Origin: Methanosarcina sp. MTP4
GTDB taxonomy: Archaea; Halobacteriota; Methanosarcinia; Methanosarcinales; Methanosarcinaceae
Assembly (NCBI RefSeq): GCF_000970045.1
Contig: NZ_CP009505.1
Coordinates: 2,232,001-2,296,000, forward strand
DNA: 64,000 nucleotides
Direction: 5' to 3'
The first letter of the stretch is position 1, and each line of letters begins with the position of its first letter. Below the pieces are notes generated by a model. It was given only the letters and a program-made list of their open reading frames with translations. It was not told the origin of the DNA and searched no databases. A program made the translations under genes and the position numbers. Below, one piece after another: positions 34,139 to 50,061 of this stretch.

Positions 34139-37100
34139 TTGCGTAGTTGTAGACCTTATAACCTGGTGATCATTCTTATTTTATTGGCTGCCCAGTTCTA
34201 CCCGGCAGCCGCATCAAGCAGCCAGGAATCAGTTCAAGAACCTTCTTACATTTCAAAAGGTACTGTTGCTGCTCTGGCAATGGTATCTCAACTTAGTGTT
34301 CAGAACCAGGTCAACACCGATCTGGACGTGGTCGGACTTATAGGCGCTTCCGAGAACAAAACAGATACTGATGGCGACGGACTGCCCGATTCTGTTGAAG
34401 CTGTTCTCGGAACTGATTTTAATAACACAGATTCTGATTTTGACAGGCTGGACGACTACAATGAATCGGTTTTCTATAGGTCAGACCCGCTTGAACCGGA
34501 TTCAAATCATGACGGGCTATCGGATTACTTTGAAGTGATGGATGTTTACTCCCTTGATGTCGATGGGGATGGTTACCCAAACATCTGGGATTTTGATAAT
34601 GATGGCGATTGCGTTGAAGATAACATCGATTCATCCCCTTTTGCTCTTTCTGCAGCCAGAGAAAGCTTCAATTTTAATCTTAAAACAAATGGAAATCCCA
34701 CCTATGTAGACTTCCAGTTGCTCCCACAAAATCCTAATAATGTGAACATAGCTTTGCAAAAATGGGACTGGCCGTATGACAATAAAAGTACGATGCAGGA
34801 CCTGGATAATTCCGAAGATGATGTGCAAGTTATCCCCATGCTTGAACTCACAATGAGTTCTGTTCCTGATCAAGCAGATGTGAAGGATTATGGGATTGGA
34901 ATCTTTTCGAATACTGCGTATGTACCTCTTGTTCAGGTTCAAGGGCTTGGAGCAAATGTTGCCCTGGCCGGTAAGATGTTCTTTCCTGAATCTGAACCCC
35001 TTGACAGTCAGGTAAATGCGAGTCTTATCTGGCTGGTGATGGCAAAGACCGATTCTATGGAAAATGGAACTGTAATATCCGAAAACACAACCCTGATAAA
35101 ATACCAGGAAAACTTCACGCTCACTGGATTTAGTATTGAGGAAAGTTATGGCAGTGATATCGGCCTTTTCTACAGTGATGAAATAAACCAGACAATTGCA
35201 GCTAACTTTGTAATGGCATATTCGTTTTTAAGAAATAATCAGACCACTGTATATGATATGCCCTCTAAACTTGCCGAGCATAACGTGAGTGTGTCCTCTA
35301 CAATTAATAGCTCATCTCATCGTGATAAGGCATTATTGAATGTTACTACCAGGATGACCCCGGGAGTTTTGAATTCGCTTCCAGAGGACATGGTTCTTCC
35401 AGTCATTTCCGCAATTGAAAGTAATTTCGCAAAAAAAGATCTGTCAGAGCTTGATTCAAGCTCTTACATGGTGGGAAATGGGCTTTCCATTAACCTAAGG
35501 AGTGAGCCTGTAATAACCCTTAAAACCTTGAAAACAAGCTGGTATAATACTACTGATCAAAAACCCCTTGTAATCGATTCAATTTTACCAGTCATCAGGG
35601 ATTGGGGGCAACTAATGAATCTGGATGATAATTCCCTTGCATCCATGATGGTTCTGGTAATAGCATGGAATATAGGTGAATCAACAGTAACAAGAATCGG
35701 GAACGATAGTACTAGTTTTGTGAATGAAGTCCTGGATGTGCTAGAGGTAATTGAAACAGGGATTGGGGGTTATCTTTTATCGTATTCTTCTTTGATTGAT
35801 GTAATAAGTATCGCTACAGAAGGTACATATCGAGTTTTTTTTGCATTAAATTATGTAGGTGAATTTATTCAGGGCGTATTAGGCCTTGTCATGTACACAT
35901 CCAAAATTGTAGATAAAGTTGTGGATGTTATCAGCACTGTGGCTAAATTTGCAGAAGGATTGGGGAAGGTTCTTGGTATAATAGGTGCGATCACGCTGGT
36001 AGTAGGATTCGTTTTTGATATAGGTTTTGCAATATGGGGTTTCTTTAAAATTGCAATGAGTGAGGGATGGTCATCAACCGGCACTTTCCAGGGAGCTGTT
36101 TATGCTACTATTATGGGTGTATATGCAATCAGTCTTTTTGTCATTGGAGTAATTTTGCTGGCAGTGGCATTAATTCCTTATGTGGGTTGGATAATTGCCC
36201 TGGTTGGAGGGATTATATTGGGAGTTATTGCACTGACCGACTTTATACTGGGATTCTTTGATATTGGTATTTCGAATCTGGTGGAAAAGTTAGTAGGTAC
36301 ATTCCATCAAACTTACATGAATACCGAATTTTCCCTCGGCCTGATTAATTCCTCGATTGACATTAAAGATTACAATGAAAATGGATTCGACATCGGGGAC
36401 AGGATAACATTTAGTAGTTTTGTTAACGGGACCGTTTTAAGAACGTCTGACGGTACATGGGAAGATGTTAAAGAAAGTTACGTTATCCCTCATTATGAGG
36501 TCAAGAGGTGGATGACTGAAGATACACCATATGCATATTGGGTTTCACCATATGGCAGTTTTACCAACAATGTATCATACTCTGAAATAAACCCTGAATC
36601 CAAGAATACCACATACGAGATCGGTGCATGGATTGAACCAAAATTGGGTACCATTAACTTCCCTCTAGCAGTCCTATTTACAGCGGACTATAAAATAATC
36701 TATACGGACAGGAAAATTGAATGGGATTTCTGGAACGGCTATAAATATACACGCCTGAACCAAACAGGAACGATCCAAAACGAGCTAGATACACTCTATT
36801 TCGATGTACTTCCAGGAAATGTCAATGATTTCACAACATGGTATCCGTTAACGTCACAGGATAAAGATAACGACGGGCTTGGTAATAATGTAGATCCCTA
36901 CCCATGGGCATGGGATGGGGACGGGGACGGGTTAAGCGATAAATTTGAACTGGACATCATAGGCTCTGACCCTGGAAGTAGGGATAAGGATGGGGATGGG
37001 TTGAGCGATCGAATGGAACTTATCTATGGGACGAACCTGACAGAATGGGATACTGATAATGATAATCTGTCAGATTACAAAGAGATCAATGGCTGGGATA

Positions 37101-40087
37101 TCAATTTCAATTACAGTGGTCAATCCTTTAATATGACTGTTAAATCCGATCCCCTTATGCCAGATACTGACAAGGACGGGGTAGATGACCAGATGGAATA
37201 CTGGAGCTCCCTCAATCCAAGATCGAAGGATTCAAATGGCGACGGTGTTGTTGATGTTCCAAATCCAAAGACTTTTACCTATGTTAATTTTGAAACAAAA
37301 TGGGGAAAAGACGGCGTATCCGGATATCCGCGGTTTGACTGCCCATCAGCAGTAGCGGTTGATGCGGATGGATATGTATATGTTGCCGATTCAGGAGACG
37401 ATTCTCACAGTGTCCAGACTTTCGATTCCAATGGTGGATGCATAAGAACAATCATACGGGGCTCAAAAGGCTCTGGAAATGGACAGTTTGGAGAGCTATC
37501 TGATATGGCTATAGATACAGCTAATGGTTATATCTATATTGCTGATTATATTTCTGGTACTGGTGGACGTATTCAGAAGTTCGATTCAGAAGGTAATTTC
37601 CTCACATCATGGAATACCGGTTCCGGATGGGGTCCAGAAATAGCAGTTGATGAAGAGGGCTATGTCTATGCTAACATAAATCACTGCATTCAAAAATTCA
37701 ATTCAAACGGGACCCTAATATCAAATCCTTATTTTAGTACTTATGAGGGTGTTACTAATGTGGCAGTTGACCTGGATGGGAACGTATATTATACAGATGT
37801 ATACAATGTTTACAAGGCTTATTCTAATTGGACATTCATAACACAATTTTATAGTGAAGGAGACTCAACCAAAGCTTTCGGTTCACCCCGGGGGTTGGCA
37901 GTAGACGATAGAGGTTTTGTCTACATTGCTGATCAGAGTAAAAACCACATTCAGAAGTTTGACCCTACTGGCTGGTTCATCACCAGATGGGGGAGCTATG
38001 GTTCTGGAGATGAGGAATTTATAAGCCCAATGGATATAGCAGTTGATGCAAATAAAAATGTATATGTCCTTGAAGCCCCCCTCGTCGCTATGTATAAGGA
38101 TACTGCTGGAAACCGCATTCAGAAATTCTCCCAGATAACTGATCTTCCTCCCCGTAATGTCTCTGAGTTCCTTGATTCCGATGGGGATGGATTGAGTGAC
38201 ATGAACGAGACCAGAGGCTGGGATGTGACCTTTAGCGACAGGTTATTGGGCACTTCAACCTGCCATGTAACAAGCGAGTTTCTGGCAAATGATACGGATT
38301 TCGATGGACTCTCTGATTTTGATGAGTACAGCTATTCATCAAATCCCAGAGATGTAGATACCGATGGGGATGGGCTAAATGATTATGTTGAGAGTGTGCT
38401 TGGGACAAACATAAATCATTATGATACCGATAATGACGGGCTGGATGATGGCACTGAGATCACTTTTGGAAGTGACCCTACAAAAGTGGATACGGATTTC
38501 GATGGACTCTCAGATCTTGAAGAATATAACCCGGATGAACCGTTCGTTTATTTCTCTGACCCATGGAATAATGACACGGATGGAGACGGATTGAATGATA
38601 AGGATGAAAGGGAATTTAATTCAAGTGCCCGTAATCCGGATTCTGATGGTGACCTCATGTTCGATGGGACTGAGAAGGAGAAGGGTACAGACCCATGGGA
38701 CCCGGATTCTGACAGGGACGGTTTGCAGGACGGGTATGAACTTCTATACAGGACGAATGCTTCGAACAATGATACCGATAATGATGGTGTGCCTGATGGT
38801 AAAGAAGTAAATAACAGGATGAACCCATTGAACAATGATACTGATGGAGATGGGCTGAGCGACTTTGAAGAGCTTGCAAATGGTACAGATCCGAGCAATG
38901 GGGATACAAAGGGTAACGGATTAAACGATTCTGAAGATCCCTACTCATTTGCACCCAACGTGGACAGGATATGGGTTGCTTATGACCCGGATGATGACAC
39001 TCAGCAACTTATTGAAAACCTAGAAAAATATACCAATGTAACCGTTTTCCGTCCGGATGAAATCCAAAACTATTCCGGTAAATCCAATATTCTACTTGTT
39101 GGGAGACCCGGACTGGAAAATAATACTGCCGGGAACATAAGCTACAGCATCCTGAAAAACAAACCAGCTATCCTTTCCAGAATGCAGGGCTCAGACTATG
39201 CAAGGTTCTATGTTGATTACGATATATGGAAATCATCCCAGACCGTTGTCATGCTTTCCCACCCATATCCTTCGGACCATTACAAGGTACTGGATCTGTT
39301 CAAGACCCTTAATCAGACAATACAATATCCAGATGTCGTCAGTGATTTCAAAGCCGATGCCATTGAAGAGATGGGGTCATTCATCCGGGTCGAATTGAAA
39401 AACCCTGTAAAGCCGTCAATAGAATTGAAATCATACAATGGAACAAATGTCCCGGAGAACTTTACCTGTGAATTATCTGCAGATGAAAAGGGTGTAAAAT
39501 TTCTGGATATCAATGTCAGTGAAAATGTCCTGAACGAAAGCTCCAATAATGTCGAACGGGCTCTGATAGTCATTTATTATACTGCTGAGGACCTTGACAG
39601 AACAGGTGATGGGGATGCTGACGATCCGGGAGATATAGATGAGAATACAATAGGCTTTAACTGGTTCAATATGTCTGCCAATAGATGGGAGAAACTAACT
39701 ACGGACATGGACTGGGTAAATGATGTCGGAATAAATACTACAAATGATATCATCTACGGCAGGGAATACGAGGGATACGTCTGGGCAAACGTCTCACATC
39801 TGAGCATGTATGGACTTTCCGGTACTGAAATAACGCAGCCTGTGCATCCTGCACCCCATGACGGACACCGCAGAATCCCGATAATCACGGAAGAAGAAAG
39901 CCAGGATGAGAATATCACGCTTGAAGATGTTCAGGCAGCCCCGGAAAGCACGGAAAACACTTCTAGAGAAACTCCTGTGGCAAAAGAAACAGGTACACTC
40001 CCTGAAATATGGTTCTATCTGGCAGCAGCCATGATAATCTTACTGACGGGGCTGGGAGCTGTATATCTATTAAGAAAGAGAACGTGA
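34139..40087 (+). CDS. Giant surface protein with Ca-binding repeats and NHL propeller (module 2)
   Basis: 1982-aa paralogue of the module 1 protein with the same architecture: signal peptide, Ca-binding repeats (about 74-165), unassigned region, hydrophobic stretch (about 544-717), beta-rich region, Ca-binding repeats (about 904-1039), NHL repeats (about 1041-1334), Ca-binding repeats (about 1341-1604), unassigned region, and TM anchor (about 1950-1976). The first about 130 residues and the last 100 are nearly the same as in module 1, while the region between about 180 and 720 has diverged strongly. TTG start with the same ribosome site. Confidence 0.8.
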   Translation: MRSCRPYNLVIILILLAAQFYPAAASSSQESVQEPSYISKGTVAALAMVSQLSVQNQVNTDLDVVGLIGASENKTDTDGDGLPDSVEAVLGTDFNNTDSDFDRLDDYNESVFYRSDPLEPDSNHDGLSDYFEVMDVYSLDVDGDGYPNIWDFDNDGDCVEDNIDSSPFALSAARESFNFNLKTNGNPTYVDFQLLPQNPNNVNIALQKWDWPYDNKSTMQDLDNSEDDVQVIPMLELTMSSVPDQADVKDYGIGIFSNTAYVPLVQVQGLGANVALAGKMFFPESEPLDSQVNASLIWLVMAKTDSMENGTVISENTTLIKYQENFTLTGFSIEESYGSDIGLFYSDEINQTIAANFVMAYSFLRNNQTTVYDMPSKLAEHNVSVSSTINSSSHRDKALLNVTTRMTPGVLNSLPEDMVLPVISAIESNFAKKDLSELDSSSYMVGNGLSINLRSEPVITLKTLKTSWYNTTDQKPLVIDSILPVIRDWGQLMNLDDNSLASMMVLVIAWNIGESTVTRIGNDSTSFVNEVLDVLEVIETGIGGYLLSYSSLIDVISIATEGTYRVFFALNYVGEFIQGVLGLVMYTSKIVDKVVDVISTVAKFAEGLGKVLGIIGAITLVVGFVFDIGFAIWGFFKIAMSEGWSSTGTFQGAVYATIMGVYAISLFVIGVILLAVALIPYVGWIIALVGGIILGVIALTDFILGFFDIGISNLVEKLVGTFHQTYMNTEFSLGLINSSIDIKDYNENGFDIGDRITFSSFVNGTVLRTSDGTWEDVKESYVIPHYEVKRWMTEDTPYAYWVSPYGSFTNNVSYSEINPESKNTTYEIGAWIEPKLGTINFPLAVLFTADYKIIYTDRKIEWDFWNGYKYTRLNQTGTIQNELDTLYFDVLPGNVNDFTTWYPLTSQDKDNDGLGNNVDPYPWAWDGDGDGLSDKFELDIIGSDPGSRDKDGDGLSDRMELIYGTNLTEWDTDNDNLSDYKEINGWDINFNYSGQSFNMTVKSDPLMPDTDKDGVDDQMEYWSSLNPRSKDSNGDGVVDVPNPKTFTYVNFETKWGKDGVSGYPRFDCPSAVAVDADGYVYVADSGDDSHSVQTFDSNGGCIRTIIRGSKGSGNGQFGELSDMAIDTANGYIYIADYISGTGGRIQKFDSEGNFLTSWNTGSGWGPEIAVDEEGYVYANINHCIQKFNSNGTLISNPYFSTYEGVTNVAVDLDGNVYYTDVYNVYKAYSNWTFITQFYSEGDSTKAFGSPRGLAVDDRGFVYIADQSKNHIQKFDPTGWFITRWGSYGSGDEEFISPMDIAVDANKNVYVLEAPLVAMYKDTAGNRIQKFSQITDLPPRNVSEFLDSDGDGLSDMNETRGWDVTFSDRLLGTSTCHVTSEFLANDTDFDGLSDFDEYSYSSNPRDVDTDGDGLNDYVESVLGTNINHYDTDNDGLDDGTEITFGSDPTKVDTDFDGLSDLEEYNPDEPFVYFSDPWNNDTDGDGLNDKDEREFNSSARNPDSDGDLMFDGTEKEKGTDPWDPDSDRDGLQDGYELLYRTNASNNDTDNDGVPDGKEVNNRMNPLNNDTDGDGLSDFEELANGTDPSNGDTKGNGLNDSEDPYSFAPNVDRIWVAYDPDDDTQQLIENLEKYTNVTVFRPDEIQNYSGKSNILLVGRPGLENNTAGNISYSILKNKPAILSRMQGSDYARFYVDYDIWKSSQTVVMLSHPYPSDHYKVLDLFKTLNQTIQYPDVVSDFKADAIEEMGSFIRVELKNPVKPSIELKSYNGTNVPENFTCELSADEKGVKFLDINVSENVLNESSNNVERALIVIYYTAEDLDRTGDGDADDPGDIDENTIGFNWFNMSANRWEKLTTDMDWVNDVGINTTNDIIYGREYEGYVWANVSHLSMYGLSGTEITQPVHPAPHDGHRRIPIITEEESQDENITLEDVQAAPESTENTSRETPVAKETGTLPEIWFYLAAAMIILLTGLGAVYLLRKRT

Positions 40088-40121
40088 ACGAAGAGAAAGA
40101 ACGTGAACGAAGAGAGAGAAC

Positions 40122-40844
40122 GTGAACATGAGAAAAATTACGCAAAACGGGCTTTCAGGCAGATTCACGATAACTCTTGTAATAATATTCATGATCTCTG
40201 TTTTTCTGATTTATTCTTATTCCAATGGGCAGGTCAGGAACGAGGAGGATTTAATATCCAAAACCTCCGATGCTCTGGAAAAAACCAGATTTTATCGCTT
40301 TGAGATGTACTCCAACCTTTCAATGATGAATGAGAATTTCCAGGTCATAAATTCGGAAGGGCAGGTTGACGTATTCAAGAATAAAATGTACCAATCGATG
40401 ACCCTTCAAAACCGCTCTATCGAGATAGTGGTCATCGATGACCAGGCATACTATCGTGAAAACAAAGGTCTATGGCAGAGTAAAAAGCTGGAAGATACCG
40501 AAGAATTAAATGCGATATTATCTGAACAACAGCTGATATTGTCCAGTGCTGAAAATTCGACCATGTCCAGAGAAGGAGATTTATGGCTGCTTGAGGTCAT
40601 TCCGGAACAGGAAAATGTGCTGGAGCAAATGCAATCCATGGGAGTCGATACTTCGGGAATCGAGCTGAAAAGCTTTGTTACAAGATACCGGATAGAAGCG
40701 GACACATATCATATAATTGAGATCGAGAGTGTCACAAACGCTGAAATGAATATCATGGGACTCAAGACACCTGTAGAACTGAAGAGCACTATTCTTTTAA
40801 GCGATTATAATAAAAAAGTATCACTGGAAGCACCGCTCACTTAA
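40122..40844 (+). CDS. Membrane-anchored LolA/LppX-like protein (module 2)
   Basis: 240-aa paralogue of the protein at 33124. Counting by eye, 15 of 240 residues differ (about 94 % identity). One N-terminal membrane segment and the same beta-rich external domain. The intact duplicate pairing with the giant protein supports a joint function. ATG is at 40128, GTG at 40122. Confidence 0.7.
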   Translation: MNMRKITQNGLSGRFTITLVIIFMISVFLIYSYSNGQVRNEEDLISKTSDALEKTRFYRFEMYSNLSMMNENFQVINSEGQVDVFKNKMYQSMTLQNRSIEIVVIDDQAYYRENKGLWQSKKLEDTEELNAILSEQQLILSSAENSTMSREGDLWLLEVIPEQENVLEQMQSMGVDTSGIELKSFVTRYRIEADTYHIIEIESVTNAEMNIMGLKTPVELKSTILLSDYNKKVSLEAPLT

Positions 40845-43758: not shown

Positions 43759-44288
43759 TTTATTCTCCAGGTTTTAACTGCCACGCCCCGTTTTTATTTT
43801 TTTAACTTAACCCGGCTCTGACAGCAAAAAACAATAAGATTGCTTCAGGAATTCTCCTGATTTTCCTGCCTCCGACAAAAATACAAGCAATCATGAAACC
43901 CATGTAAATAATTTCTAATATATATACATTCCCATTTGATACTCATACTGTTTTCGGAAGCAGGAGGAGGAAATCTCACAGGGCGGCGCTATATAGAATA
44001 TAGAGTTATTCGAGGGAATTAGTTAACAATGAGAAGATGAAAATTAGTAAGCTGCTGAAATTGTTTAGCTGTTTTCAACCCTCATTTTAGTGGAAGCTAC
44101 TTATCGACTCTATATGAAAAGGTTGTATCAAAAAGAAATCCACCATGTATCAACTGTGTCTGTAAAATCCTGCTCAGGAATTTTGTTGCCTGCTTTTCCT
44201 CGCCTGCCGGTTCCAGAGCGTTTCAATCCTTGTTTTAGCGAAAGCTACGCCTGTATTCAGGTCACACAAGCGTAAATGTGAGAAATGA
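43759..44288. other. Gap with promoter and fossil CRISPR units
   Basis: 43759-44060 is AT-rich with TATATATAC near 43920, a likely promoter for the minus-strand operon. 44071-44256 holds three decayed CRISPR repeats (own entry). No gene. Confidence 0.5.
44071..44256 (-). CRISPR. Decayed CRISPR units beyond the TPR gene
   Basis: Three degenerate repeats with 38-base spacing between each: 44071-44108 (first-type repeat, ends GGAAGCTACTTATCGAC), 44147-44181 (weaker, ends ATCCTGCTCAGGAAT, near the later repeat type), and 44220-44256 (begins GTTTCAATCCTTGTTTTAG). They are separated from the live array by a 1.3-kb TPR gene. The even spacing supports a fossil array rather than chance matches. Confidence 0.7.
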
Positions 44289-45581
44289 TCACTCCGAAAT
44301 AAAAGCACCTTTGTATTTCGAAGGATCAAAGTCAGGTTTTAATTCCAGTACCCGCTGGTATGCTTCATCTGCATCTTTGTTCCTTCCAAGTTCGGACAAG
44401 ACACAACTCAACTTATACCACGATTTTACATAATCAGGTTTTATTTCTACTGCCCTGTAGTAATGTTGTAATGCTTCATCGTAATTCCGGAGTTTGTAAA
44501 GAACGTCAGCCTTATTGGACCATGCCATAGGAAATTCCGGATCGATTTTTAGGGCTTTGTCATAAATGCTGAGCGCCACTTTGGGCTGGTCCAGGAAATC
44601 CAGGCAGCTTCCGATATTAATCAAGGCTCTCATATCTTTTGGATTTAATTTGATAACTTTGTTGTTTGCGATAAGGGCGTCATTATACATTCCAAGCAAT
44701 AAAAAAGAATTGCCCAGACTATACCAGCCTTCGGCAAAATCAGGGGAGATTTTCAAAGATATTTCATAGCACTGGACCGCTTCTTCCTCTCTTCCAAGCT
44801 TGTGAAAAGTAGATGCTCTGTTGTACCATAAATAAGAAATATAAGTTACTCTTTCAGGACTGACTTCCTCTTCCACTCCCTCTTTCACTCCCCCTTCCAC
44901 TCCCTCTTTCCCGAAACTTTTTGAACCGACTTCAAATTCAGAAAGGGCTTTTTCATAGTCCTGCAGAGCTCTTTCATAATCTCCAATGCTCAAAAACTCA
45001 TCAGCTCTCGCAGCAAATGCTTCAAAAAAATCAGGTTTTACTTCTATTGCCTTCCCAAAATAGAACAGTTTTTCATTCAAATCAGTTGCTTTAAGCCCCA
45101 TTTTAAGAGATTCCCTGGCCCGGTGCAATAATTCATCCAGATAAAAAGACTCGATACAGGAATCAAATATGCTTTCAAAAACCGGAAATAATTTCGCTTT
45201 TACGGAAGTGCATGTAATCAAAAACTCTGTTCCATACCTGGCAAACGCAACCTTTTTTGTTTCAGCTCCAAAGTAAGAATAGAGAAATTCCAGTGCAGGA
45301 ATACCCTTAACAATTATGCGCTTTCTGGATTTGACATTGCGGAATTTTAAAGCCCTTTCTGAATATATTTCGATCTCTTCTATGGATTCACAAATTCCAT
45401 AGGTGGGTCCGACTACTAAATTGATCGCAGCCATATCAGGACCTGTAAAAATTACCATTGCATCCCTGGAGTCTTTCTGACTTTTGGGATGAGCCTTCCA
45501 CCCCTCCGGACATTGAATAGAACAGGCATAATCCTCACAATAATACGTCCTTCCATCTTCCTGAACCCTGAAATCAGCCAT
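44289..45581 (-). CDS. TPR protein with N-terminal DcrB/PsbP-like domain
   Basis: 430 aa. The N-terminal part (about 1-150) has the pattern of a small alpha-beta DcrB/PsbP-like domain (CSIQCPEGWKAH, INLVVGPTYG); this call is tentative. Then come about seven TPR units (about 155-420), with an acidic low-complexity loop near 220-245 (KEGVEGGVKEGVEEE). No signal peptide or TM. It lies between the fossil CRISPR units and the old end of the array, in the direction of array transcription. Its start region (GAGGGATTGAAATG) is strikingly similar to the conserved repeat end AAGGATTGAAAC, so the ribosome site may derive from a repeat. No Cas-like motif is seen. Confidence 0.75.
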   Translation of the reverse strand: MADFRVQEDGRTYYCEDYACSIQCPEGWKAHPKSQKDSRDAMVIFTGPDMAAINLVVGPTYGICESIEEIEIYSERALKFRNVKSRKRIIVKGIPALEFLYSYFGAETKKVAFARYGTEFLITCTSVKAKLFPVFESIFDSCIESFYLDELLHRARESLKMGLKATDLNEKLFYFGKAIEVKPDFFEAFAARADEFLSIGDYERALQDYEKALSEFEVGSKSFGKEGVEGGVKEGVEEEVSPERVTYISYLWYNRASTFHKLGREEEAVQCYEISLKISPDFAEGWYSLGNSFLLLGMYNDALIANNKVIKLNPKDMRALINIGSCLDFLDQPKVALSIYDKALKIDPEFPMAWSNKADVLYKLRNYDEALQHYYRAVEIKPDYVKSWYKLSCVLSELGRNKDADEAYQRVLELKPDFDPSKYKGAFISE

Positions 45582-45759
45582 TTCAATCCCTCTAAATTAG
45601 TATCAACAGCAAATCAGAAAAACCTATTCATTTTGCAACTACTAAACTGAAACACAATTCCATAATTTAGTATGTCGATCCCAGAGGCTCTGTTTCATCC
45701 CAAAATGATTTCCTTGATCTGCCTGAACTTCATATCCAGTTCTAATCCTTGTTATAAAG

Positions 45760-48700
45760 TTTCAATCATTGTTTTAGTGGAAGCTACTTCTCGACAAATA
45801 ATAGATGGGATCAATTACCGATAAGAGTAATGTTTCAATCCTTGTTTTAGTGGAAGCTACTTCTCGACAAATATGGCTGACGCTCTTCAGGCAGTTGTAG
45901 GAAGGTTTCAATCCTTGTTTTAGTGGAAGCTACTTCTCGACTATATTAACACATACGAGCATGTAAAGAGAATGAAGTTTCAATCCTTGTTTTAGTGGAT
46001 CTTGCTCACGAATCTTGTAATCGGGTCAACATCTCACACTAATTGTTATAGTTTCAATCCTTGTTTTAGTGGATCTTGCTAACGAATCAGTGATAATATG
46101 TACAACAAAAATACACAACTATGTTTCAATCCTTGTTTTAGTGGATCTTGCTCACGAATTCCCATGCTTACTCGTGCTGCAGGTCAGACTACTCAAGTTT
46201 CAATCCTTGTTTTAGTGGATCTTGCTAACGAATCTGACCAAAATATCAGGATTACCAATAGATTACCGTAGTTTCAATCCTTGTTTTAGTGGATCTTGCT
46301 CACGAATACTGCCTTATGGACAACTGGTGACGGCATTTGGTATTGTTTCAATCCTTGTTTTAGTGGATCTTGCTCACGAATGAGCTGAACGAACCTGACA
46401 GGACAGACGCGAAGATGTTTCAATCCTTGTTTTAGTGGATCTTGCTCAAGAATTTCCTGGTATCCGTCTTTCTCTCCCTCGTAACCGAAAGTTTCAATCC
46501 TTGTTTTAGTGGATCTTGCTCAAGAATTTCATACACTGTTTGTTCCTCCGTTTATCATCGTTTCAATCCTTGTTTTAGTGGATCTTGCTCAAGAATACGC
46601 GTTACAAGGTCCCAAGCTTCAGGCAGTGTTAAGTTTCAATCCTTGTTTTAGTGGATCTTGCTCAAGAATAAATTCACGGAGGGCGCTCAGGCTCTCGTCG
46701 GGTAGTTTCAATCCTTGTTTTAGTGGATCTTGCTCAAGAATACCGCACTCACTGAGGTAGCCATGAGTCAGGACGTGTTTCAATCCTTGTTTTAGTGGAT
46801 CTTGCTCAAGAATGGGTGTGAGTTGGAACCTTCTTTTGCATTGAAATGTGTTTCAATCCTTGTTTTAGTGGATCTTGCTCAAGAATAAATTAGAGTTGTA
46901 TCGACAAGAGAAGAATTACATCGTTTCAATCCTTGTTTTAGTGGATCTTGCTCAAGAATGCCATTCTAGGTGTGGCGATTATTGGAAAGGAACTGAGTTT
47001 CAATCCTTGTTTTAGTGGATCTTGCTCAAGAATGCCATTCTAGGTGTGGCGATTATTGGAAAGGAACTGAGTTTCAATCCTTGTTTTAGTGGATCTTGCT
47101 CAAGAATTTATTCCAATGTCAAAGGCCACTTTGATGGAGGATGAGTTTCAATCCTTGTTTTAGTGGATCTTGCTCAAGAATCCGGGGATTTCTCGGGAGG
47201 AAAGGGAGAAGTTGGAGTTTCAATCCTTGTTTTAGTGGATCTTGCTCAAGAATATAGGCGGTTGCATAGGCATTATAATCTTTGTACCTCGTTTCAATCC
47301 TTGTTTTAGTGGATCTTGCTCAAGAATCGGTGTTAAACAGTTAGAGAGATGATGGGATACTCCAGTTTCAATCCTTGTTTTAGTGGATCTTGCTCAAGAA
47401 TTCATACGCGGTTGCGGGGGATAGTGCGTATTTGCGGTGTTTCAATCCTTGTTTTAGTGGATCTTGCTCAAGAATCTGAATCCGGCATACCGTCTACAAA
47501 ATGGACCGATGGTTTCAATCCTTGTTTTAGTGGATCTTGCTCAAGAATCTGCCGTCTGGCATGGTTTCCACGTGCTCGAAATCTTGTTTCAATCCTTGTT
47601 TTAGTGGATCTTGCTCAAGAATGGGGGTGTGTTGTTCGGGGTCATGTCGTATCCTGAAGTTTCAATCCTTGTTTTAGTGGATCTTGCTCAAGAATTACAG
47701 CAGCACCTACGCCTGCGGCGATTACACCGGCAGGCCCAAATTTAGTTTCAATCCTTGTTTTAGTGGATCTTGCTCAAGAATCGGTCGGGAAGCCTGCCCC
47801 AAACTTGATTTTTTGGGTTTCAATCCTTGTTTTAGTGGATCTTGCTCAAGAATCTCTCCGTTTCCCGTCCCCGCTTAATAGCTGCTGGAGTTTCAATCCT
47901 TGTTTTAGTGGATCTTGCTCAAGAATGTTCTCAGTGCGTTTGTCACGGGATAACCTGATTCTGTTTCAATCCTTGTTTTAGTGGATCTTGCTCAAGAATT
48001 CTTACTGTATACTCTACTATGCAACCTAAACTAGTTTCAATCCTTGTTTTAGTGGATCTTGCTCAAGAATTTATACATACATATACATATACATATACAA
48101 TACTTACTCTCTAGTTTCAATCCTTGTTTTAGTGGATCTTGCTCAAGAATGATCTCCCTGCAGTCTTCCAAAAATTGCAGGATTTTGTTTCAATCCTTGT
48201 TTTAGTGGATCTTGCTCAAGAATACGTGGACCTCGGGGCCACATATTCAAATCCAACTAGTTTCAATCCTTGTTTTAGTGGATCTTGCTCAAGAATTCAG
48301 CCCCCTACCCTGCAGTCGTGGAATGAGAGTGTGTTTCAATCCTTGTTTTAGTGGATCTTGCTCAAGAATCTGAATAAAATCTGTGATACTTTTCACGATG
48401 AATGTTTCAATCCTTGTTTTAGTGGATCTTGCTCAAGAATTTAGCCCCTTTTGAGTACCCGAAGCCGCCGACTGCGTTTCAATCCTTGTTTTAGTGGATC
48501 TTGCTCAAGAATCTCAGCCGACTACGCCACCACACCAGTACAATACAGGTTTCAATCCTTGTTTTAGTGGATCTTGCTCAAGAATAGGATATTTGACCAA
48601 TAGTTCACCCTCCAATATTTTGTTTCAATCCTTGTTTTAGTGGATCTTGCTCAAGAATCCGTTTTCGAAGTTTTATATGAACCGTGGTATAAAGTTTCAA

Positions 48701-49756
48701 TCCTTGTTTTAGTGGATCTTGCTCAAGAATTCATTGATTTTTGGGTCCGTGTCCGGTTGCCATGCTGTTTCAATCCTTGTTTTAGTGGATCTTGCTCAAG
48801 AATCCGGGATCATTGACAGAATAGACTGTGGAGTATATGTTTCAATCCTTGTTTTAGTGGATCTTGCTCAAGAATTTTTATAATCCTGATATTTCCGGAA
48901 AATTGAAGGCTGTTTCAATCCTTGTTTTAGTGGATCTTGCTCAAGAATACGCATCCGAATGGACCGACGTGGCCACCAAGTGGAGTTTCAATCCTTGTTT
49001 TAGTGGATCTTGCTCAAGAATCCTATTGAAATATGTCTCAGGCAGGGACACACAGAACGTTTCAATCCTTGTTTTAGTGGATCTTGCTCAAGAATACCAA
49101 CATCCGGAAGAATGGCATAACCCGGATTTCAAGTTTCAATCCTTGTTTTAGTGGATCTTGCTCAAGAATATCACAAATGGGTTAAACTATGAATCTCTCA
49201 AAAGAGTTTCAATCCTTGTTTTAGTGGATCTTGCTCAAGAATTGTATGAATTTATGAGAGAAAAAGGGGAATTTTGACGTTTCAATCCTTGTTTTAGTGG
49301 ATCTTGCTCAAGAATATTTCGGGTCGATGGTCCTGAAAGTAGGCGGGACAAGTTTCAATCCTTGTTTTAGTGGATCTTGCTCAAGAATAAATCGTTATTA
49401 TTTCCCGTGGGAAAATAGACCCTCTATGTTTCAATCCTTGTTTTAGTGGATCTTGCTCAAGAATGGCCAAAATCCCTAAATGCCTACTCCCGGAAGTGAT
49501 CGTTTCAATCCTTGTTTTAGTGGATCTTGCTCAAGAATATAGATAGCTCGGGCAACGGAAACAACGGGACGAGTTTCAATCCTTGTTTTAGTGGATCTTG
49601 CTCAAGAATGCCTTTGTCCCGTCCGATGTGTATATACCATTCCGGGTTTCAATCCTTGTTTTAGTGGATCTTGCTCAAGAATAAAAGGCACTCATGCTGC
49701 AGGGGACCGGATCAAACGGGTTTCAATCCTTGTTTTAGTGGATCTTGCTCAAGAAT
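45760..49756 (-). CRISPR. CRISPR array, 55 repeats and 54 spacers
   Basis: 37-nt repeats with 34-43-nt spacers, mostly 36-37. On the plus strand each begins GTTTCAATCCTTGTTTTAGT; the transcribed strand is minus, where repeats end in GGATTGAAAC, the standard crRNA handle. Three repeat classes occur in order from low to high coordinate: A (repeats 1-3, ends GGAAGCTACTTCTCGAC), B (repeats 4-9, ends GGATCTTGCTCACGAAT or the CTAACGAAT variant) and C (repeats 10-55, ends GGATCTTGCTCAAGAAT). Repeat 1 has one base change and repeat 2 lacks one C. The spacer between repeats 17 and 18 (46960-46996) is duplicated between 18 and 19 (47034-47070). One spacer (48071-48113) is a 43-nt ATATAC repeat. The apparent open frames inside the array are artefacts. 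No cas genes are in the window. Confidence 0.98.
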
Positions 49757-49870
49757 ACCGCGAATTTTTGCCTGTTTTTAGCCAAAGGAGGCCTGAAAAG
49801 GGTCCTTTTTTAGAGCTAAATTTCTTGATGGTAATTTATCAAACCCTTTATATAGACAAGAAAATCCGGG
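49757..49870 (-). promoter_or_regulatory. CRISPR leader and promoter
   Basis: Sequence next to the youngest repeat. On the minus strand TCTATATAAAGGG (49844-49856) is a good archaeal TATA box; transcription would start near 49820 and run into the array. The leader also has the pair AAAGGA/TCCTTT around the GGCCTGAAAAGGG stretch. The handle orientation and the degenerate far end both agree with this side being the leader. Confidence 0.65.
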
Positions 49871-50061
49871 TTTTTGATTGTTTGAAAAACTTTAATTATA
49901 TCTGAGTAACTTTCTATTAAATTTTCGTATATAAAACTGTTTTGCAAGAATAAAACAGGGGTGCTTTTAAGGCCTCAGTATTCCGCAATAAATATTACCA
50001 ACCTCCCCCATTATCCGCCTCATAACACCCAACCCAAAATCCCCCAAAAAAGGAATAAAAA
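49871..50061. other. Gap between leader and ATP-grasp gene
   Basis: AT-rich; no gene. It probably contains the promoter of the plus-strand ATP-grasp gene. Confidence 0.4.

What the first reader, a model, noticed from the sequence alone, without database searches (positions are those of the whole stretch)
45760..49756. CRISPR array whose repeat changes class twice from old to young end
Repeats 1-3 end GGAAGCTACTTCTCGAC (class A), repeats 4-9 end GGATCTTGCTCACGAAT or CTAACGAAT (class B), repeats 10-55 end GGATCTTGCTCAAGAAT (class C). The 20 bases at the other end, including the ATTGAAAC handle, never change. B to C is one base, fitting mutation of the leader-next repeat that is then copied. A to B replaces a block of about 15 bases, which fits recombination between arrays or a swap of the acquisition source. 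The array therefore records three generations of repeats.
Basis: partly seen in the sequence, partly recalled or inferred. Interest (0 to 1): 0.75.

Follow-up and report, generated by a model that had tools for sequence, protein, structure and literature searches.

The report
Fused type III and I-B CRISPR array
In this methane-producing archaeon, a CRISPR immune-memory array turns out to be a splice: its three oldest units come from a different (type III-linked) array than the other 52, most likely joined by recombination through the half of the repeat that both kinds share, so the array is a mosaic and not a simple timeline of one repeat changing.

Summary
Window 45759-49756 is a 55-repeat array read A x3, B/B' x6, C x46 from trailer to leader; the leader is on the right. 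The interpretation needs changing. Class A is not an older generation of B/C. It is the repeat of a separate type III-linked array family. In three Methanosarcina genomes a class-A-type array with its own leader and cas1-cas2-CARF genes lies directly upstream, in the same orientation, of a separate class-B-type array with its own leader; a fourth has both arrays but no longer the cas1-cas2-CARF genes. Here the A repeats abut the B repeats, and leader A and those genes are absent. The first 23 nt of the repeats are identical and 10 of the last 14 differ, which fits recombination in the shared half that fused two neighbouring arrays. Mirror-image fusions (old B, young A, leader A) occur in at least two relatives, and a D-to-B fusion in the nearest one. 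B to C is one base and fits mutation of the leader-next repeat. B and B' alternate, which simple copying does not explain. Composite arrays are known in outline; this cross-type case is a variant.

The parts
   Evidence: 32/37 identities to class A; background maximum 22/37 in 57.8 kb
44220..44256 (+). decayed class A repeat, 148 nt (two units) after the previous one
   Evidence: 30/37 identities
44289..45581 (-). TPR-repeat protein gene (430 aa) lying between decayed and intact class A repeats
   Evidence: Pfam TPR hits; ORF
45739..45756 (+). truncated repeat half directly before repeat 1
   Evidence: 15/18 identities to the conserved half
45759..45941 (+). class A block, repeats 1-3 (trailer end), type III-linked repeat
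45942..45976 (+). spacer 3; the A/B junction lies between it and repeat 4
   Evidence: junction pattern found in no other of 112 family genomes
45977..46381 (+). class B/B' block, repeats 4-9, order B,B',B,B',B,B
46417..49756 (+). class C block, repeats 10-55 (leader end)
46960..47070 (+). spacers 17 and 18, an exact tandem duplication of one spacer-repeat unit
49757..49943 (-). leader core (transcription into the array runs right to left)
   Evidence: 75-83% identity to leaders of B-type arrays in other Methanosarcina; no match to leader A
44016..50019 (.). segment absent from the syntenic locus of the nearest relative (BL5_bin6, L203), i.e. the extent of the variable CRISPR segment
   Evidence: flanks align at 91-93%

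Best explanation
The array is a composite made by recombination between two neighbouring CRISPR arrays that share the first 23 nt of their repeats. The trailer end (decayed repeats at 44072 and 44220, repeats 1-3) is what remains of a type III-linked 'class A' array. The leader end (repeats 4-55 plus leader) is a I-B-type orphan array. In an ancestor laid out as [A array - leader A - cas1 - cas2 - CARF gene - B array - leader B], a crossover between an A repeat and a B repeat removed leader A and the adaptation genes and fused the arrays in register. At some point a TPR gene came to lie within the A remnant, and a one-base change in the leader-next repeat (B to C) was copied with each of about 46 acquisitions. 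The fused array is presumably transcribed from the single remaining leader, so the three A spacers would depend on that promoter and on a Cas6 able to cut at the shared ATTGAAAC end. Shown: the composition, the homologous unfused layouts, the absence of leader A and cas1A from the locus, and the homology of the leader. Inferred: the deletion event, the order of events, and transcription and use of the A spacers.
For: Unfused tandem layout A array - leader A - cas1 - cas2 - CARF - B-type array, all in one orientation, in STD2_179 (L054; 6 repeats identical to the window's class A), Ant1 (L083/L232) and a complete genome G099. G082 (complete) keeps the A array, leader A and the B array but lacks cas1-cas2-CARF between them. 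Leaders A are homologous to each other (72-81% over 500-650 nt) and unrelated to leaders B. Class A arrays lie with type III effectors: Cmr in Ant1, Cmr1/Cmr6 in G082, III-D in G099. The window has no cas gene homologues. The A/B difference is 10 of 14 in one block with no intermediates. The own genome has the parallel layout E array - leader - cas1 - cas2 - B array (8), with a decayed E-type repeat sitting inside the B array. Tandem spacer duplications in the window array and in the D and E arrays show that repeat-mediated recombination occurs in this genome. Other fusions: D'(47)->B''(44) in BL5_bin6; old-B/young-A arrays with leader A in G097 and G105. The literature attributes array rearrangement to homologous recombination between repeats (PMC8047081).
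Against: No genome with the unfused A-B pair at this exact chromosomal site was found; the nearest relative has no array there, although it carries SEC-C and pRiA4b genes like those beside A/B arrays elsewhere. A crossover between unlinked arrays, or import of an already fused array, would look the same. No spacer is shared with any compared array, so the event cannot be dated. The B,B',B,B',B,B alternation is not predicted by simple fusion plus copying. The literature finds recombination between arrays rare (Kupczok et al. 2015, cited in PMC11472070).
Confidence: 0.72

Rival explanations
1. Leader-side replacement from elsewhere: a B-type array with its leader was brought in by horizontal transfer or by crossover with an unlinked array, replacing the leader end of a class A array. 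No local tandem ancestor existed.
For: In BL5_bin6 the leader core (first 107 nt) is B-type while sequence beyond it is D-type, so leader and leader-end repeats can be exchanged together. A leaderless B array exists elsewhere in this genome (3725626-3726178).
Against: The tandem A-B layout recurs in at least three genomes, which makes a local deletion the shorter path. No remnant of leader A or cas1A lies to the right of the array.
Confidence: 0.2
2. Stepwise evolution of one repeat lineage: A mutated to B and B to C in the leader-next repeat, each copied onward.
For: Polarised leader-end addition with copying of the first repeat is established; B->C is one base and gives a clean block of 46.
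Against: A->B needs 10 changes in 14 nt with no intermediate; class A exists as a separate array family with another leader and cas1; B and B' alternate.
Confidence: 0.05
3. Trailer decay: repeats 1-3 are degenerate terminal repeats, as in many arrays (PMC8047081, PMC4466440), not a separate class.
For: Terminal repeats often diverge at one end; repeat 1 has a substitution.
Against: Repeats 2-3 are identical to each other and to 6 repeats in STD2_179, and near-identical repeats form a 20-repeat array in G099. Decay would not converge on a consensus.
Confidence: 0.02
4. Assembly artefact at the class boundary.
For: Repeat arrays are misassembly-prone; reads were not available.
Against: Single-contig genome; junction units have normal length (72 nt); comparable junctions occur in independent assemblies.
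Confidence: 0.03

Closest known systems
Array rearrangement by recombination between repeats (review PMC8047081; Kupczok et al. 2015 and Held et al. 2013, known here only as citations in PMC11472070 and PMC6452263)
   Same: Repeat homology drives deletion, duplication and exchange of spacer-repeat units.
   Different: Here the two partners belong to different CRISPR types and leaders, and the junction is marked by the repeats themselves.
Terminal (trailer) repeat polymorphism, e.g. Streptococcus agalactiae CRISPR1 (PMC4466440)
   Same: Divergence is at the oldest end and in one half of the repeat.
   Different: Here it is a block of several repeats identical to the consensus of another array family, not degeneracy.
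Methanosarcina mazei Go1 subtype I-B and III-C systems (PMC7465815)
   Same: Related genome with co-resident I-B and type III systems, and a CARF regulator that binds both leaders.
   Different: That paper describes separate arrays; no fused array is reported in the passages read.
Composite array of BL5_bin6 (L119/L234): 47 D'-type then 44 B''-type repeats
   Same: Abrupt class change inside one continuous array, young repeats matching the leader.
   Different: Both classes are I-B-like and the array sits beside its I-B cas operon.

Membership tests
Type I-B-type (class B) array, leader part | Leader homologous to leaders of B-type arrays | tested here: met
   75-83% identity over 72-173 nt to leaders in STD2_179, DH2, 2.H.T.1A.6, MSH10X1 and UBA293
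Type I-B-type (class B) array, leader part | Repeat equal to, or within one base of, B-type arrays in relatives | tested here: met
   Class B is exact in UBA293, MSH10X1, M. spelaei and G082; C is one base away
Type I-B-type (class B) array, leader part | I-B cas operon adjacent | tested here: not met
   No cas homologue in the window; two I-B Cas8b loci elsewhere in the genome flank class D arrays. Orphan array.
Type I-B-type (class B) array, leader part | Served in trans by the I-B machinery | not testable with these tools
   Needs crRNA sequencing or acquisition assays
Type III-linked class A array | Class A repeat | tested here: met
   Exact match to repeats of L054; one base from most of the G099 array
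Type III-linked class A array | Leader A followed by cas1-cas2-CARF | tested here: not met
   Absent between A and B repeats and from the window; only a fragment of such an array
Type III-linked class A array | Matching type III effector in the genome | tested here: inconclusive
   Cmr4 (III-B) not found in the own genome; a III-A Csm locus with class E arrays is present; III-C and III-D not searched
Degenerate terminal repeat | Divergence by decay, without an independent consensus | tested here: not met
   Class A is an independent consensus elsewhere

The most novel reading that the evidence does not exclude
In Methanosarcinaceae, arrays of type III and I-B repeatedly splice into each other in both directions through the conserved repeat half. 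Spacers gathered by one CRISPR type thereby come under the leader, and possibly the effectors, of another: a transfer of immune memory between types that outlives the loss of the first system.
Probability: 0.2. Interest if true: 0.65.

Novelty: new variant of a known kind. Interest (0 to 1): 0.42.

Why it matters
CRISPR arrays are read as timelines, and repeat variants within an array are usually put down to mutation or trailer decay. This locus and its relatives show that a class change can instead mark a join between arrays of different types. Such joins are recognisable, recur within one family, occur in both directions and can preserve spacers of a system whose adaptation genes are gone. 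The locus is a ready test of whether I-B processing and effectors can use spacers framed by type III-linked repeats that keep only the shared ATTGAAAC half.

Tried and rejected
Spacer targets: the array's spacers (one low-complexity spacer left out, the duplicate given once) against 50,697 phage records gave no match. Class A core in IMG/VR: none. Shared spacers between this array and arrays of relatives, to date the switch: none. Synteny with the unfused A-B loci of STD2_179 and Ant1: only array and leader sequence aligned. Array relics at the syntenic locus of BL5_bin6: only one 25/37 candidate (L203:9285), suggestive at best. A decayed repeat midway between 44072 and 44220: no convincing match. 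The first idea that class A marks III-B only was dropped, because class A arrays accompany III-B, Cmr1/Cmr6-type and III-D effectors in different species. Hairpins predicted for the repeat classes are weak and uninformative.

Full report
WHAT IS THERE. The window lies at G000:C1:2232001-2296000 of a single-contig 4.21 Mb methanosarcinal genome. All 55 repeats were extracted. Repeats 1-3 end ...GGAAGCTACTTCTCGAC (A). Repeats 4-9 run B,B',B,B',B,B (B ...GGATCTTGCTCACGAAT; B' ...GGATCTTGCTAACGAAT). Repeats 10-55 are all C (...GGATCTTGCTCAAGAAT). Spacers are 32-49 nt, mostly 35-37. The first 23 nt are shared; A and B differ at 10 of the remaining 14 positions. Repeat 1 has one change in the shared half, so 'never change' is slightly wrong. 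Spacers 17 and 18 are identical. The leader is on the right: 49757-49943 is homologous to the leaders of B-type arrays in other Methanosarcina.

The class A part is longer than listed. At 44072 and 44220 lie decayed class A repeats (32/37 and 30/37 identities; background maximum 22/37 in 57.8 kb), 148 nt (two units) apart, and a truncated repeat half sits at 45739 just before repeat 1. A TPR gene (44289-45581, minus strand) lies between the decayed and intact A repeats. Compared with the nearest relative (BL5_bin6, L203), the segment from about 44016 to 50019 is a replacement: both flanks align at 91-93%, and the relative carries other genes there.

OTHER ARRAYS IN THE SAME GENOME. Class D arrays (...GGATTTTGCTCACGGAC) flank two I-B loci with Cas8b/Csh1. 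Class E arrays (...CTGGAAGCTGTTTTGCAAC) flank a III-A Csm locus. Class A occurs only at this locus. Class B occurs here and in a leaderless array of 8 at 3725626-3726178, which follows an E array, its leader, cas1 and cas2, and which contains a decayed E-type repeat. Tandem spacer duplications occur in this array and in the D and E arrays, so recombination between repeats happens in this genome.

WHAT CLASS A IS. The scan of genome contigs shows that the constant half is common to many repeat families. Class A is the consensus of a distinct array family. In STD2_179 (L054) a 13-repeat class A array, six repeats identical to the window's A, is followed by leader A, cas1, cas2 and a CARF-HTH gene, and then by a separate 36-repeat B-type array in the same orientation. 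Ant1 has the same layout with a variant A repeat, preceded by a Cmr operon, cas6 and a group II-type RT. The complete genome G099 has the same order. G082 keeps the A array, leader A and a 54-repeat class B array but no cas1-cas2-CARF between them. Leaders A align with each other at 72-81% over 500-650 nt and not with leaders B. The type III effector varies: Cmr in Ant1, Cmr1/Cmr6 in G082, Cas10d/Csx10 (III-D) in G099. So class A is type III-linked, not strictly III-B. The own genome lacks Cmr4, and its closest relative of the class A cas1 is the E-locus cas1 at 67%; III-C and III-D effectors were not searched for.

MECHANISM. In the window, A and B repeats adjoin with one 35-nt spacer between them, and no leader A, cas1, cas2 or CARF gene is left. 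A crossover within the shared 23 nt of an A repeat and a B repeat of a tandem A-B locus would produce exactly this: a junction repeat with a B tail, preceded by an A spacer, and loss of everything in between. G082 may show a partial step, with the genes gone and the arrays still apart. The step from tandem to fused locus is inferred, because no strain with the unfused form at this chromosomal site was available.

GENERALITY. The A->B junction is found only in this genome among 112 family genomes (exact pattern). The reverse order, B repeats at the old end and A repeats next to leader A, occurs in G097 and at two remnants in G105 (one of the two matched the exact pattern), and a similar pair lies in G071. 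G043 has an A-like terminal repeat before an E array. BL5_bin6 has 47 D'-type repeats followed directly by 44 B''-type repeats beside its I-B operon, with a leader that is B-type for 107 nt and D-type beyond. Among 102 sampled arrays of four or more repeats only a handful have such junctions. In the junctions where a leader could be identified, the young repeats match it and the foreign ones lie at the trailer end.

B TO C. One base, a clean block of 46, the same leader: mutation of the leader-next repeat followed by copying is the simplest account and was not tested further. The B,B',B,B',B,B alternation needs more than copying (recombination between sister arrays, or recurrent change) and stays unexplained.

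VERDICT. Observation confirmed with corrections; interpretation partly supported. The A->B step is a join between two array families, not a generation change. Rearrangement of arrays through their repeats is known (PMC8047081), recombination between arrays is reported as rare (PMC11472070), and trailer-repeat divergence is known (PMC4466440). The cross-type, two-way mosaicism seen here is a variant of that.

Noticed in passing
L203:12148-13677 (BL5_bin6, syntenic with window 44016-50019): Where the window has its CRISPR array, the nearest relative carries a prokaryotic viperin (PADLOC pVip, 7.5e-76) with a VakA-type kinase gene, and a Csa3-like gene nearby. The site looks like a defence hotspot.
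   Followed up: partly
L203:8598-11058; L231:1450-3013; L249 and L247/L248 inter-array gaps; L233; L029: SEC-C and pRiA4b-like genes (62-79% identity) recur beside or between class A and B arrays in several Methanosarcina, and also at the array-free syntenic site of BL5_bin6. Possible CRISPR-neighbourhood companions of unknown role.
   Followed up: partly
window 46051 and 46197 (repeats 5 and 7): B' repeats alternate with B repeats; simple copying of the leader-next repeat does not give this pattern.
   Followed up: no
L158:14863-16179; L232:13052-14215; L247:11283-12416; L249:13176-14351; L054:77-802: A group II intron-type reverse transcriptase/maturase gene sits next to the class A or E array in these type III loci (family assignment tested for L158 only; the others by similarity).
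   Followed up: partly
G000:C1:3725555-3725590: A decayed class E repeat lies inside a leaderless class B array, another sign of exchange between arrays in this genome.
   Followed up: partly
L020 (M. spelaei), minus strand about 3895 and 4776: Two isolated repeats identical to class C, 881 nt apart and outside any array.
   Followed up: no
window 34139-40844: A 1982-aa protein with TSP3 and NHL/beta-propeller repeats; part of the next gene (40122-40844) appears to recur beside a class D array at about G000:C1:2805300.
   Followed up: no
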